A stretch of DNA of 32,056 nucleotides from Zoogloea sp. Its GTDB lineage: Bacteria; Pseudomonadota; Gammaproteobacteria; Burkholderiales; Rhodocyclaceae. Where the stretch lies: positions 1-32,056 of the forward strand of contig NZ_JAFLDT010000050.1 in assembly GCF_017302315.1 (NCBI RefSeq), in the 5' to 3' direction. Numbering within the stretch: the stretch's first letter is position 1; the number at the start of each line of letters is the position of its first letter. The notes beneath the pieces are model-generated. The model made no database searches and was not told the DNA's origin. It was given only the letters and a program-made list of their open reading frames with translations. Positions 6,301-11,476 of this stretch are shown here, piece by piece. The position numbers were made by a program, and so were the translations under genes.

Positions 6301-7509
6301 CTACAGCAGCCCTTTGGCAAAGGTGAATTGGTAGCGCAGCAGGTAGACGTTGTTGTCTGTCGTGCCGTCCCGCTCCCGGTGCCATTCGGCGGTGATCCGG
6401 TGGCCGTCGAGGGGGCGCCATTTGACAACCGCGCCGAGGCTGGTGGGGTTCTTGTCGGCGTCGGTGAGGCCGCTCTGGGTGGCGACGAGGCCGGCATTGA
6501 CGCCGGCCAGGTGGTGGCGGCCCACCAGGCGTTCGGCGCGGCCGATGACTTCCCAGCCGGGGGCGAGGCGCCAGCCCACATCCACCCAGCCGCCGTTGAG
6601 CTTGCCGGTGTAGGCGGGGGCGCCGTTGATGCTGTCGAGGCGGCCCTCTTCACGTTTGTACCACCACTCGGCACCGACCCACAGGGGGCTGTCGGCGGGA
6701 GTCCAGCGCGCCGCCAGGGAGAGGAGCTGGGCGGTGCCGTCGAAGCACACCCGGTCGGTGGTGATGCGGGTGCAGCTGGGTACGCTGTGGGTATGGCCCA
6801 CGTTGCCGGTGGTTACCAGGGCTCGGCCGTCGGCATTGACATTGGCGTAGCCGGCCTCCAGTTGCAGCGTTTCCCTCTTCCAGCCGGCCCGGGCGGTGAG
6901 CAGCTTGAAGCCGCCGGCATCGGCGCCGGGGAAGCTCTGGTTGCGCCAGGCGCCAAGGCCCAGCGACCAGCCGGCCGGGTGATTCCAGTCGCTGCGGACG
7001 CCGTCGGCGCGCCAGTAATCGTTCACCGCGCCGCGCATGGCCAGGGGTGAGATGCCGAAGTCCCGGGCATGGACGTGGATGGGGTTGAGCAGGCCCAGGG
7101 GCAGTAGCTGGCGGCCGACCCGCAGGGTAGCCAGGTGGTCGTGGGCCGGCGCGATGCGCCCTTCGAGCCAGGCTTCCTCGGTGTGGTTGCTGCTGTCCGG
7201 GCCGCCGTGGTGCGCCACTTTCAGGAAGCCGCGCAAGGCGTCGCTGAAGCGGGCGCGCAGGGCGATCTCGGCGTAGTCGAGGCCGTCGCGACGTTCGTCG
7301 GCCCGGGGGCTGCCGGCTTCGAGCACGCCGGGCAGGCGCGGGGCGGGGTAGGGCTGATCCGCATGCAGGGACATCAGCCCGAAGCCGCCGGAGATGCTCA
7401 GGCGGTCTTCTGCCGGGGCTGCAGTCTCATGGGCGGCAGCCTGGCCCGCGAAGGCCAGGAGGAGGGAAGGCAGCAGCAGGGCGGCAGGCTTACTTGAAGG
7501 GATTGGCAT
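6301..7509 (-). CDS. Outer-membrane beta-barrel protein of the MMP operon
   Basis: The 402-residue product starts with a clear Sec signal peptide (hydrophobic LLLPSLLLAFAG, cleavage near AAA-HE). It is otherwise made of alternating amphipathic strands with frequent aromatic residues, typical of an outer-membrane barrel. The mature N-terminus begins with His, and two cysteines (SVPSCTRITTDRVCFDG) could form a loop disulfide. I do not recognise a named porin family. It is the last gene of a minus-strand operon, and its start overlaps the preceding mbnH by 20 bases; an upstream ATG at 7536 would lengthen it by nine residues. Neither start has a good ribosome site, which suggests coupling to the gene before it. 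Co-transcription with MbnP/MbnH suggests a role in metal or metal-chelate passage, but that is inference. Confidence 0.8.
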   Translation of the reverse strand: MPIPSSKPAALLLPSLLLAFAGQAAAHETAAPAEDRLSISGGFGLMSLHADQPYPAPRLPGVLEAGSPRADERRDGLDYAEIALRARFSDALRGFLKVAHHGGPDSSNHTEEAWLEGRIAPAHDHLATLRVGRQLLPLGLLNPIHVHARDFGISPLAMRGAVNDYWRADGVRSDWNHPAGWSLGLGAWRNQSFPGADAGGFKLLTARAGWKRETLQLEAGYANVNADGRALVTTGNVGHTHSVPSCTRITTDRVCFDGTAQLLSLAARWTPADSPLWVGAEWWYKREEGRLDSINGAPAYTGKLNGGWVDVGWRLAPGWEVIGRAERLVGRHHLAGVNAGLVATQSGLTDADKNPTSLGAVVKWRPLDGHRITAEWHRERDGTTDNNVYLLRYQFTFAKGLL

Positions 7510-9841: not shown

Positions 9842-11476
9842 TTACTTGGCCTTCACGGCAAAGACCTTCTGGGCGGCGCCGCCGTTGATGGGCAGGCCGG
9901 TGGCCAGGTCGATCTGCAGGGCCTGGAAGGTGCCCGGGCATTCCGGATCGGTGGTGCCGGACATGCAGCCCGCTGCGCCGCCGCCTTCATAGCTCAGGTC
10001 GGAGTTCTTGAACAGCTCGGCCAGATCGAGGACGATCTTCTGGGTGCTGGCGTTGAAGGCCGCGAAGGAGAAGTCCATGCGGTTGGGGTTGGTACAGGCG
10101 GTCACGACGCCCTTGGTGGGGTCGCCCTTGCAGCCGGTGGAGCCCAGGTGCACGTTCCAGGTGGTCGTGGTGGTGCCGTCGGGGCGGGCGATCGGGGTGT
10201 CGGGCACGTACTCGATCTTCATGAACTTGCGGCCAGCCTGCCAGGACCAGGCCATCGCCGAGCTGGTCAGGATCTCGGGGGTGGTGGTGGCCGTGGTGTT
10301 GCTGTGGTTCAGGGAAACCTTGTCGGCATCGGCGGACTTGACCGGAACGCCCACGCTCAGGGTAACGCCCACGTAGGTGCCCGGGGGGACCTTGCCGGTG
10401 AGGGTGGTGTAGGTGGCGGCGGTGCCGGTGCTGGTGGGGCACTTGCCGGTGGCGTCTTCGAAGTCGATCAGGGCCACGTCACGGGCCTGGTTGGCATTGG
10501 CGTCGAGGGTCACGGGAACCGTATTGCCCTGAGCGTCGATGAGCAGCACGTTGGTGACGTAGAAGCGCAGGTCCTTCACCTGGCCGGCGGTGGCCTTGGT
10601 GCCCAGACCGGTCAGGGGAACGCCGCAGGAGACCGCCTGACCACCAGCGGTGACATCGAACGTGATGCTGACTGCCTGGGTGGCGGCGGCGGTGCTGCCC
10701 TTTTCGAAGGCGACAATCTTCTTCAGCGTGTTGGGGCTGTCCACGGCGACAACGCCGGCGGTGGTGAAGGTGGGGTTGGTGGTGTCGGCCGAGGTGGCCT
10801 TCTGCACGGTAAGGGCGTCTTCCGCCTGAGCCAGCAGGACCTTCTGCACGGCCTTGGCGTTGCTGTCGGACTTCAGGCCGTCATAGCCGGACTGCAGGGA
10901 CTTGGCCACCACCTTGGCGGCCTCATGGGCGCGGGCGTAGCGACCGGCTGAGGTGGCATCGGCCTGGGTGGCGCTGCCCTTGCCGGCGATGTAGTCGCTG
11001 AACAGGCTGACCGTGGTGTCGGTGATGCCGAGGAGGTTCTTGACGGCGCTCTCCGCGCTGTCCACCGTCGCGCCGGCAGCGACCTTCTGCTGGACCAGGG
11101 TGGTGAGCGGGCTCACGAAGCTGCCCTTGCCGGCGGGGGCGGACAGGAAGTAGGGCTTGCCGACGGTGCCGGTCGGATTGTCGCTGTCCACCGCGGTGGC
11201 CGGAACCAGAACCAGCACCGGGTACTTGTTTTCGTCGCCGGCGGTGAGATCACTCAGGGTGTACTTGCCACCGTCGGTGGTGGTGGTGCTCGGCTCGCTG
11301 CTGTCGCAGGCGCCATTGGTGTTGATGTCCAGACACACGGTCGCACCCTTCAGGTAGCCATCTGCGACCGTGCCGGACAGGGATGACTTGCTGGAGCCAC
11401 CACCGCCGCCGCCGCAGGCTGCGAGGAGGGCGGATGCGAGGGCAGTCAGGGCGAACAGGGAGGCGTGCTTGGGCAT
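9842..11476 (-). CDS. mbnP: MbnP-family copper protein fused behind a lipoprotein domain
   Basis: The 544-residue lipoprotein has lipobox LAAC (Cys21) and a Gly/Ser tether. Residues 33-80 form a small domain with CLDINTNGACDSSEPSTTT, as found in many Gram-negative surface lipoproteins. Residues 110-260 are mostly helical with no name I recognise. Residues 267-544 are an MbnP domain: SITFDV, CGVPLTGLG, DLRFYVTNVLLID, VALIDFEDATGKC, MAWSWQAGRKFMKIEY, WNVHLGSTGC and CMSGTTDPEC. Six cysteines (284, 346, 449, 461, 504, 513) fit the four-Cys family motif. Characterised MbnP binds copper after a tryptophan is turned into kynurenine; Trp410 or Trp412 is the best candidate here and His443 a likely ligand (inference). 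MbnP is usually only the C-terminal half, so the fusion is unusual. AAGGA lies seven bases before the ATG. It is the first gene of the four-gene operon. Confidence 0.92.
   Translation of the reverse strand: MPKHASLFALTALASALLAACGGGGGGSSKSSLSGTVADGYLKGATVCLDINTNGACDSSEPSTTTTDGGKYTLSDLTAGDENKYPVLVLVPATAVDSDNPTGTVGKPYFLSAPAGKGSFVSPLTTLVQQKVAAGATVDSAESAVKNLLGITDTTVSLFSDYIAGKGSATQADATSAGRYARAHEAAKVVAKSLQSGYDGLKSDSNAKAVQKVLLAQAEDALTVQKATSADTTNPTFTTAGVVAVDSPNTLKKIVAFEKGSTAAATQAVSITFDVTAGGQAVSCGVPLTGLGTKATAGQVKDLRFYVTNVLLIDAQGNTVPVTLDANANQARDVALIDFEDATGKCPTSTGTAATYTTLTGKVPPGTYVGVTLSVGVPVKSADADKVSLNHSNTTATTTPEILTSSAMAWSWQAGRKFMKIEYVPDTPIARPDGTTTTTWNVHLGSTGCKGDPTKGVVTACTNPNRMDFSFAAFNASTQKIVLDLAELFKNSDLSYEGGGAAGCMSGTTDPECPGTFQALQIDLATGLPINGGAAQKVFAVKAK

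What the first reader, a model, noticed from the sequence alone, without database searches (positions are those of the whole stretch)
6301..11476. Four-gene metallo-mystery-pair operon with two diheme enzymes and a barrel
Seen: one MbnP-family gene, two tandem MbnH-family genes and an outer-membrane barrel gene, closely spaced or overlapping on one strand. Known: the characterised MbnH/MbnP pair makes a copper-binding protein by oxidising Trp to kynurenine. Inferred: two enzymes acting on one MbnP, or one acting on the barrel, plus a possible metal route through the outer membrane. I know of no described system of this four-gene composition.
Basis: partly seen in the sequence, partly recalled or inferred. 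Interest (0 to 1): 0.82.

Follow-up and report, generated by a model that had tools for sequence, protein, structure and literature searches.

The report
Copper-capture operon with metal porin
In the bacterium Zoogloea, one operon encodes a probable copper-binding protein, two enzymes of the kind that chemically prepares it, and an outer-membrane channel that is a cousin of channels found beside zinc importers, which suggests an undescribed route for taking up copper.

Summary
The window carries MbnP (9842-11476), two tandem MbnH (8643-9818, 7490-8635) and an outer-membrane barrel (6301-7536), all on the minus strand. Both diheme proteins exceed the MbnH cut-off and keep both CxxCH motifs, the inter-heme Trp and the distal Tyr. 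Of 23 Zoogloea genomes, 11 carry all four genes, one carries MbnP plus one MbnH, and 11 neither MbnP nor MbnH. The tandem MbnH is rare: outside the genus I saw it at one Nitrosomonadales locus. The barrel is the more general discovery. Outside the genus it follows an MbnP-MbnH pair, with the copper chaperone PCuAC nearby at 16 of 25 single-MbnH loci. Its distant relatives lie next to a ZnuA-like gene at 19 of 19 loci inspected. The two branches separate cleanly, and only the Mbn branch has a HxH...C...C loop (34 of 36 against 0 of 19). A RegA/RegR-like palindrome precedes MbnP in Zoogloea and three other lineages; RegBA-like genes are close in the window, one other Zoogloea locus and the Nitrosomonadales locus. 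Best reading: a redox-controlled copper-acquisition operon with a non-TonB metal porin and a kynurenine copper site matured by two diverged MauG-like enzymes. Chemistry and transport are inferred.

The parts
9842..11476 (-). mbnP-like gene: lipoprotein (LLAAC lipobox), ~240-residue N-terminal extension, C-terminal MbnP domain
   Evidence: TIGR04052 257.8 bits, cut-off 140; PF20243; 7l6g by sequence and by fold, E 1.6e-31; lipobox in 11 of 11 copies of the genus (window, L039-L048), L047 being cut before its start codon
10241..10249 (-). WxW motif, Trp410 and Trp412; predicted Trp410 to kynurenine
   Evidence: W410 and W412 invariant in 21 aligned MbnP; only three Trp in the protein: 410, 412, 440; first-Trp-to-Kyn chemistry recalled from Manesis 2021, not read
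8643..9818 (-). mbnH1: diheme enzyme, predicted lipoprotein (VLMSC); start 9818 chosen over the first ATG at 9941
   Evidence: TIGR04039 489.5 bits; CxxCH x2, W130, Y329; start by relatives
7490..8635 (-). mbnH2: second diheme enzyme, no lipobox, diverged paralogue type
   Evidence: TIGR04039 451.7 bits; CxxCH x2, W120, Y319; H2-type clade of 13 rows, SH-aLRT 99
6301..7536 (-). outer-membrane barrel gene, probable start 7509; 16-strand porin-like
   Evidence: AF2 pLDDT 74, pTM 0.75; Foldseek top hits porins 8jto, 6ehe, 5mdo
7033..7116 (-). barrel constriction-loop-like motif GRQLLPLGLLNPIHVHARDFGISPLAMR after strand 5
   Evidence: NxxHxH shared with 19 of 19 Znu-linked relatives, the 11 copies of the genus and L108; position after strand 5
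6742..6798 (-). barrel loop GHTHSVPSCTRITTDRVCF: HxH plus two Cys, the only Cys of the barrel
   Evidence: HxH..C..C in 34 of 36 Mbn-linked barrels, 0 of 19 Znu-linked; between strands 9 and 10; Cys positions
11542..11558 (-). RegA/RegR-like palindromic box TGCGACACTATGCCGCA upstream of mbnP
   Evidence: RegR consensus GNGRCRTTNNGNCGC quoted in PMC5506826 (passages)
11513..11541 (-). putative promoter: -35 TTGTTG (11536-11541), 17-base spacer, -10 GAAAAT (11513-11518)
   Evidence: alignment of promoters of the genus; the strict sigma-70 scan found none, so inferred
12575..14385 (-). RegA-like response regulator (12575-13135) and RegB-like kinase (13132-14385), candidate regulators, one PfpI-like gene away from mbnP
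   Evidence: NF033791 163.5 bits and NF033792 144.4 bits, both below cut-off; homologous pair divergent from mbnP in L108

Best explanation
It is a redox-controlled copper-acquisition operon of the cell envelope. (1) Metal enters through the barrel, a non-TonB 16-stranded porin related to barrels found beside zinc-type importers; a His-containing loop after strand 5 and a HxH/two-Cys loop bias it towards copper. (2) Under the outer membrane the lipoprotein MbnP holds Cu(I) in a site that needs Trp410 of its WxW motif oxidised to kynurenine. (3) The lipid-anchored MbnH1 does this oxidation with peroxide, or oxygen plus electrons, as a MauG-like diheme enzyme. (4) MbnH2, with an intact catalytic core but altered residues around its second heme, most likely also acts on MbnP, under other conditions or as a second step. 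(5) Expression is switched by a RegBA-type two-component system through the palindrome upstream of mbnP. Shown by sequence: families, catalytic residues, conservation, neighbours, box. Inferred: transport, metal identity, the reaction, the division of labour between the two MbnH, regulation. My odds for MbnH2: acts on MbnP 0.55; another protein or a peroxidase/relay role 0.30; the barrel 0.15.
For: Families over cut-off; catalytic residues in both MbnH. PCuAC gene within 900 bases upstream or 600 downstream of the cluster at 16 of 25 single-MbnH barrel loci outside the genus, against 4 of 23 barrel-less MbnH loci. Barrel relatives next to a ZnuA-like gene in 19 of 19 loci inspected; two barrel groups split by one branch, SH-aLRT 99. 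MbnP-MbnH directly before the barrel in 27 of 28 loci found by a barrel query, the exception starting at a contig end. H2-type MbnH alone with MbnP in L049. Box at 0-2 mismatches upstream of mbnP in the 10 copies of the genus that have upstream sequence, 1 mismatch in L049, 0 in L053, L088 and L108. RegBA-like genes near mbnP in the window, L045 and L108.
Against: No expression, metal or mass data. RegA/RegB-like proteins are below their NCBIfam cut-offs; no RegBA pair was found in the held stretches of the other 9 tandem Zoogloea loci; At. ferrooxidans RegA sites did not follow the published motifs (PMC5506826, passages). The box is at 3 or more mismatches at most barrel loci outside the genus, and the pattern also occurs away from mbnP in L039, L040 and L108. 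Tandem loci have no PCuAC at the locus (0 of 12). The PCuAC-bearing loci come mostly from related Burkholderiales and are not independent. The barrel could be a generic porin, and its relatives point to zinc-type importers. Barrel model confidence is moderate; loops 147-157 and 242-252 are below pLDDT 50.
Confidence: 0.6

Rival explanations
1. Two enzymes, two substrates: MbnH1 matures MbnP while MbnH2 oxidises a residue of the barrel (for example near its HxH/Cys loop), making a second modified metal site in the channel.
For: H2-type differs at 15 positions that are conserved in 35 H1 and barrel-linked MbnH rows; 6 of the 15 lie at 237-256 (H1 numbering) around heme 2. In the genus the full barrel occurs in exactly the 11 genomes with both MbnH. 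The barrel has 15 Trp.
Against: Barrels occur with one non-H2 MbnH per MbnP at 25 loci outside the genus; H2-type occurs alone with MbnP in L049, whose genome has only the distant barrel paralogue.
Confidence: 0.15
2. The operon handles zinc or another metal, not copper: the barrel is kin to barrels of zinc-type import loci and MbnP may bind something else here.
For: Distant barrel relatives next to ZnuA-like genes in 19 of 19 loci; in the own genome a COG0523 (cobW-type) gene is there too.
Against: The Mbn-linked branch is separate, has its own HxH-Cys2 loop and PCuAC neighbours in 16 of 25; MbnP of OB3b binds copper (recalled).
Confidence: 0.1
3. The barrel is a surface-display or secretion partner: it passes or anchors MbnP on the outside rather than importing metal.
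For: MopE and CorA, kynurenine copper proteins of methanotrophs, are surface-associated, and SACCP sits with MopE on the surface (PMC3912023 passages; PMC3621798 passages); MbnP and MbnH1 have lipoboxes.
Against: The closest solved folds are porins and the model has a helical loop after strand 5 as porins have; relatives sit with metal ABC importers.
Confidence: 0.12
4. Copper stress defence: MbnP and the MbnHs sequester copper or consume peroxide, and the barrel is incidental.
For: MbnH belongs to the diheme peroxidase superfamily; PCuAC, CopC and YcnI-type genes can belong to resistance loci (recalled).
Against: No copper efflux or multicopper oxidase family among the ORFs scanned between 82 and 17609; the AcrB-type pump at 28032-31166 and its outer-membrane partner at 26608-28611 are 15 kb away; the mopE and corA genes are lowered by copper.
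Confidence: 0.12

Closest known systems
MbnP/MbnH pair of Methylosinus trichosporium OB3b (TIGR04052/TIGR04039, PDB 7l6g and 6e1c)
   Same: Both proteins, WxW motif, diheme catalytic residues, adjacent genes
   Different: Two MbnH instead of one; MbnP carries a lipoprotein extension of ~240 residues; a porin-like barrel follows; no MbnB-family gene at the locus
MopE/SACCP and CorA/CorB of methanotrophs
   Same: Kynurenine copper site plus a co-transcribed diheme peroxidase-like partner (PMC3912023, passages)
   Different: [quoted passage not shown] no barrel gene and one diheme protein in the passages seen
Znu-linked outer-membrane barrel family (19 loci here)
   Same: Homologous barrel (27% identity over 286 columns), same NxxHxH loop motif, gene next to that of a periplasmic metal-binding protein
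   Different: Other side of a supported branch; lacks the HxH-Cys2 loop; neighbours are ZnuA and ABC-3 genes, not MbnP/MbnH
CrtA/BfrG and OprC TonB-dependent copper receptors
   Same: Copper-linked outer-membrane import; MbnPH-like genes occur in DUF2946-led copper operons (PMC9426467 section 10; PMC12914433 passages)
   Different: This barrel has no plug or TonB-receptor match and 16 predicted strands, not 22
General 16-stranded porins (BpsOmp38, OmpT, PorB, Omp32, OprO)
   Same: Barrel fold and a loop after strand 5
   Different: 10-14% identity in the 20 best hits, no porin Pfam match, dedicated partner genes

Membership tests
MbnH (TIGR04039) | Score over curated cut-off | tested here: met
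   489.5 and 451.7 bits, cut-off 362.85
MbnH (TIGR04039) | Two CxxCH motifs, inter-heme Trp, distal Tyr ligand (taken as MauG W93/Y294 equivalents; equivalence partly from recall) | tested here: met
   CxxCH and Trp in 75 of 75, Tyr in 73 of 75; both window proteins keep all
MbnH (TIGR04039) | Forms bis-Fe(IV) and oxidises Trp of MbnP | not testable with these tools
   needs spectroscopy and MS
MbnP (TIGR04052) | Score over cut-off and MbnP fold | tested here: met
   257.8 bits, cut-off 140; Foldseek 7l6g E 1.6e-31
MbnP (TIGR04052) | WxW motif and invariant His/Met/Cys | tested here: met
   W410, W412, H391, H443, C504, M505 invariant in 21 rows
MbnP (TIGR04052) | Binds Cu(I) through a kynurenine-dependent site | not testable with these tools
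   needs purified protein
General porin (Pfam families) | Porin Pfam match | tested here: not met
   no family at E 0.01; relatives only below the cut-off of PF07642 BBP2 (L146 22.1, L088 14.5 bits, cut-off 26.2)
General porin (Pfam families) | 16-stranded barrel with loop 3 folded into the pore | tested here: inconclusive
   16 strands and a helical loop after strand 5, but pLDDT under 50 at 147-157
TonB-dependent receptor | Plug domain and 22 strands | tested here: not met
   no plug match, 16 predicted strands
Znu-linked barrel family | Sequence homology to the family | tested here: met
   27% identity, E 3e-12 for this pair
Znu-linked barrel family | Adjacent znuA/ABC-3 and position on that side of the tree | tested here: not met
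   Mbn-linked barrels lie on the other side of a branch, SH-aLRT 99; no znuA among the ORFs scanned at the locus
RegB/RegA two-component system | NCBIfam equivalog cut-offs (250, 350 bits) | tested here: not met
   163.5 and 144.4 bits; RegB-like protein has GGAGNPL where GGXXNPF is quoted in PMC8191878 (passages)
Methanobactin operon | MbnB/MbnC and precursor genes at the locus | tested here: not met
   MbnB/TglH/ChrH family found only on contigs C138 and C97 of the own genome; mbnC and precursor not searched

The most novel reading that the evidence does not exclude
A previously undescribed copper-import machine: a passive, copper-selective porin, evolved from the zinc-import porin family by changing its metal-binding loop to HxH/Cys2, hands copper to a kynurenine-containing lipoprotein that is matured by two diverged MauG-like enzymes, all switched by a RegBA-type redox system placed next to a copper-free bd oxidase.
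Probability: 0.4. Interest if true: 0.8.

Novelty: new variant of a known kind. Interest (0 to 1): 0.66.

Why it matters
How copper crosses the outer membrane when it is scarce is poorly known; the specific routes named in the papers seen here are TonB-dependent receptors and chalkophores, besides unspecific porins. This points to a further, testable route: a recurring MbnP-MbnH-porin cassette with a zinc-linked sister group for comparison. The tandem MbnH, kept in catalytically intact form in 11 genomes of one genus, gives a way to ask whether MauG-like enzymes can specialise on one substrate.

Tried and rejected
Rejected: that the tandem MbnH is a recent duplication inside the genus. The tree puts the second copy in a clade with the lone MbnH of L049 and the first MbnH of L108 (SH-aLRT 99), so the two types are older than the genus or one came by transfer; the tree does not decide which. 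Rejected: that MbnH2 is decaying; it keeps the catalytic residues and dN/dS is 0.09-0.25 in 5 pairs. Rejected: that the TonB receptor at 3878-6052 belongs to the operon; it is on the other strand, and its kin were found only in L045 among the 10 tandem Zoogloea loci fetched. Led nowhere: Pfam and NCBIfam on the barrel; the fold of the MbnP N-terminal extension gave no confident match besides 7l6g; the strict sigma-70 scan found no promoter; paper search returned unrelated papers. Idea not supported: a Trp (W440) specific to tandem loci; MbnPs of loci with one MbnH (L049, L053) have it too. DUF2946 (copper-linked uORF family): in the own genome only a below-cut-off match on contig C96, not here. 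Notes on counts: the automatic start of L048 was wrong (4 mismatches scored) and L046 was scored at another site; in the alignment the L048 box has 0 and the L046 box 2 mismatches; L047 is cut before its promoter. My notebook says 20 of 23 genomes for the distant barrel; a recount gives 21. Script 81 listed L090 twice; it is counted once here.
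Full report
Observation. Both diheme proteins pass the MbnH cut-off and the partner passes the MbnP cut-off; solved homologues match strongly. The barrel has no NCBIfam match at E 0.001 and no Pfam match at E 0.01. Gaps are 23 and 7 bases, and the barrel overlaps mbnH2. MbnP is a lipoprotein with a ~240-residue extension before the MbnP domain; MbnH1 has a lipobox too, MbnH2 has none (reading).

Host and conservation. The window is a whole contig (C112) of a 4.5 Mb genome. In 23 genomes of the genus, 12 have MbnH and 11 of these have two (8 of 15 among the more complete genomes have MbnH). 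MbnP is in the same 12. The full barrel (over 640 bits) is in exactly the 11 with two MbnH. The 10 fetched tandem loci other than the window have the order MbnP-MbnH1-MbnH2-barrel; the twelfth genome (L049) has MbnP plus one MbnH and no Mbn-type barrel. dN/dS is 0.09-0.41 for the four genes, 5 pairs each.

How rare is the tandem. At E 1e-80, 16 of 200 genomes of the order, 9 of 297 of the family and 17 of 398 of the phylum have MbnH. Two copies occur only in the own genome (order and phylum samples) and in the 6 genomes of the same genus in the family sample. One Nitrosomonadales locus (L108), found through the barrel, also has MbnP-MbnH-MbnH-barrel.

The two MbnH. In a quick tree of 75 MbnH rows (duplicate fetches of the same genomes dropped: L068-L082, L098-L107, L122), the 11 MbnH2 of the genus, the lone MbnH of L049 and the first MbnH of L108 form one clade (13 rows, SH-aLRT 99); the 11 MbnH1 form another (96); the place of the second MbnH of L108 is unresolved. 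The two types are thus not a recent duplication within the genus. All 75 keep both CxxCH motifs and the inter-heme Trp, and 73 keep the distal Tyr, including both window proteins. H2-type differs at 15 positions conserved in 35 H1 and barrel-linked rows; 6 of them lie at 237-256 around heme 2. In BthA (PMC6405878, passages) Tyr-His ligation of the 6-coordinate heme is MauG-like, and changing that Tyr to His abolished the NIR feature. Because an H2-type enzyme stands alone beside an MbnP with an intact WxW (L049), I favour MbnP as its substrate.

The barrel. AlphaFold2 gives 16 strands, pLDDT 74, pTM 0.75, with a helical loop after strand 5. The 20 best Foldseek hits are porins or porin-like barrels at 10-14% identity. 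A barrel query in genome contigs gave 28 loci, 10 of them of the genus; 27 have MbnP-MbnH directly before the barrel, and the other starts at a contig end. Starting from MbnH outside the genus, 10 of 33 loci (15 order, 3 family, 15 phylum genomes; one barrel partial, one in two frames, one found only by a second-round profile; several loci end near a contig edge) have the barrel adjacent. So this barrel type goes with MbnPH, while MbnPH is often found without it.

Metal context. At barrel loci outside the genus with one MbnH per MbnP, a PCuAC copper chaperone gene lies within 900 bases upstream or 600 downstream of the cluster in 16 of 25; at barrel-less MbnH loci outside the genus in 4 of 23; at tandem loci (window, 10 of the genus, L108) in 0 of 12, in the stretches held. 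The 25 are mostly related Burkholderiales and not independent. All 23 genomes of the genus have PCuAC; the own genome's only match is on contig C96. Barrel-less MbnPH loci also have CopC, DUF1775, TonB-receptor or MbnB/TglH/ChrH-family neighbours, in line with PMC9426467 section 10, which lists PCuAC, YcnI, CopC and MbnPH-like genes in DUF2946-led copper operons.

Kin of the barrel. A distant relative (55-94 bits) occurs in 21 of 23 genomes of the genus whether or not MbnH is there, and in 19 genomes without an Mbn-linked barrel in the phylum sample. I inspected 19 loci (18 of those 19, G769 not fetched, plus the own genome). All 19 have the relative next to a ZnuA-like gene on the same strand, and all 19 have an ABC-3 permease match nearby, weak (24 bits) in the own genome (ZnuA and cobW confirmed there by Pfam). 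In a quick 55-row tree the 36 Mbn-linked and 19 Znu-linked barrels fall on two sides of one branch (SH-aLRT 99; some long branches, L090 and L092 longest). The HxH...C...C loop is in 34 of 36 Mbn-linked (missing in L090, L092) and 0 of 19 Znu-linked barrels. NxxHxH in the loop after strand 5 is shared by the 19 Znu-linked barrels, the genus and L108, while other Mbn-linked barrels mostly have a GH-DRF-like variant. The tree has no outgroup, so that the zinc-linked state came first is inference. The simplest reading is a metal porin family with a zinc-type branch and a copper branch.

Regulation. Aligning promoters of the genus shows TGCGACAnnaTGyCrCATTG about 80 bases before mbnP in otherwise poorly alignable sequence. 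In the window the pattern, which was itself taken from that alignment, occurs once, here, with 0 mismatches; 8 of 100 shuffles had a match at up to 3 mismatches. The core is at 0-2 mismatches in the 10 copies of the genus with upstream sequence, 1 in L049, 0 in L053, L088 and L108; random stretches of the same loci did as well in 0-8% of 60 draws for the 0-1 mismatch cases. It is at 3 or more mismatches at most barrel loci outside the genus, and exact matches also lie away from mbnP in L039, L040 and L108. It fits the RegR consensus GNGRCRTTNNGNCGC quoted in PMC5506826 (passages) with one mismatch in the window. RegBA-like genes lie upstream of mbnP with one PfpI-like gene between in the window and L045, and directly divergent from mbnP in L108; none were found in the held stretches of the other 9 tandem Zoogloea loci. 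They score below the RegA/RegB equivalog cut-offs; another RegB-looking ORF is on contig C96 of the own genome (reading), so this may be a local paralogue pair. A cytochrome bd oxidase (cydAB) is divergent from the window's RegBA-like genes; bd oxidases contain no copper (recalled).

Mechanism and limits. I propose copper entry through the barrel, capture by kynurenine-MbnP, maturation by MbnH1 and MbnH2, and RegBA-type control. First-Trp oxidation and the OB3b Cu(I) site are recalled from Manesis 2021, which is not held; the CorA kynurenine site is from PMC3912023 (passages). Nothing here measures metal, modification or expression. A strict promoter scan of 5900-11800 found none, and its five terminator-like sites are all on the plus strand.

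Literature. Searches of the open library (listings, plus the papers cited by passages or section) showed no description of an MbnPH-linked porin or of tandem MbnH; most subscription papers are absent, so novelty in print is not settled.

Noticed in passing
L146:2349-6404 (own genome contig C96): A cobW-type (COG0523) gene, a below-cut-off DUF2946 match, the distant barrel paralogue and ZnuA follow one another on the + strand; the genome's only PCuAC match is on the same contig.
   Followed up: partly
window 12575-17609: RegBA-like pair divergent from a cytochrome bd oxidase (cydAB), next to the copper operon; L045 has the RegBA-like genes and the cydA-like ORF in the same places.
   Followed up: partly
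window 82-6052: Hybrid PAS kinase, FixJ-type regulator and TonB receptor; kinase and FixJ genes also abut the barrel in L039/L040, where the window-type TonB receptor was not found.
   Followed up: partly
L060:10762-11562, L063:8061-8873: MbnB/TglH/ChrH-family (DUF692) genes close to MbnP-MbnH pairs in two genomes of one other genus (L060 by Pfam, L063 by similarity to it), hinting at linked RiPP copper peptides.
   Followed up: no
L113 and L118: Two MbnP-MbnH pairs from different MbnH clades within about 8 kb, one of them followed by a barrel.
   Followed up: no
L150, L159, L160, L161, L162, L163, L164: Znu-linked barrels with long His/Asp/Glu-rich loops where the Mbn-linked barrels have HxH and two Cys.
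   Followed up: no
window 9842-11476, residues 1-264: MbnP N-terminal extension with a DxNxNGxCDxxEP stretch; seen in the genus, L049 and L108 among the 21 aligned rows (L065 has a different long N-terminus); function unknown.
   Followed up: partly
window 26608-31166: AcrB-type RND pump and outer-membrane efflux protein genes.
   Followed up: no
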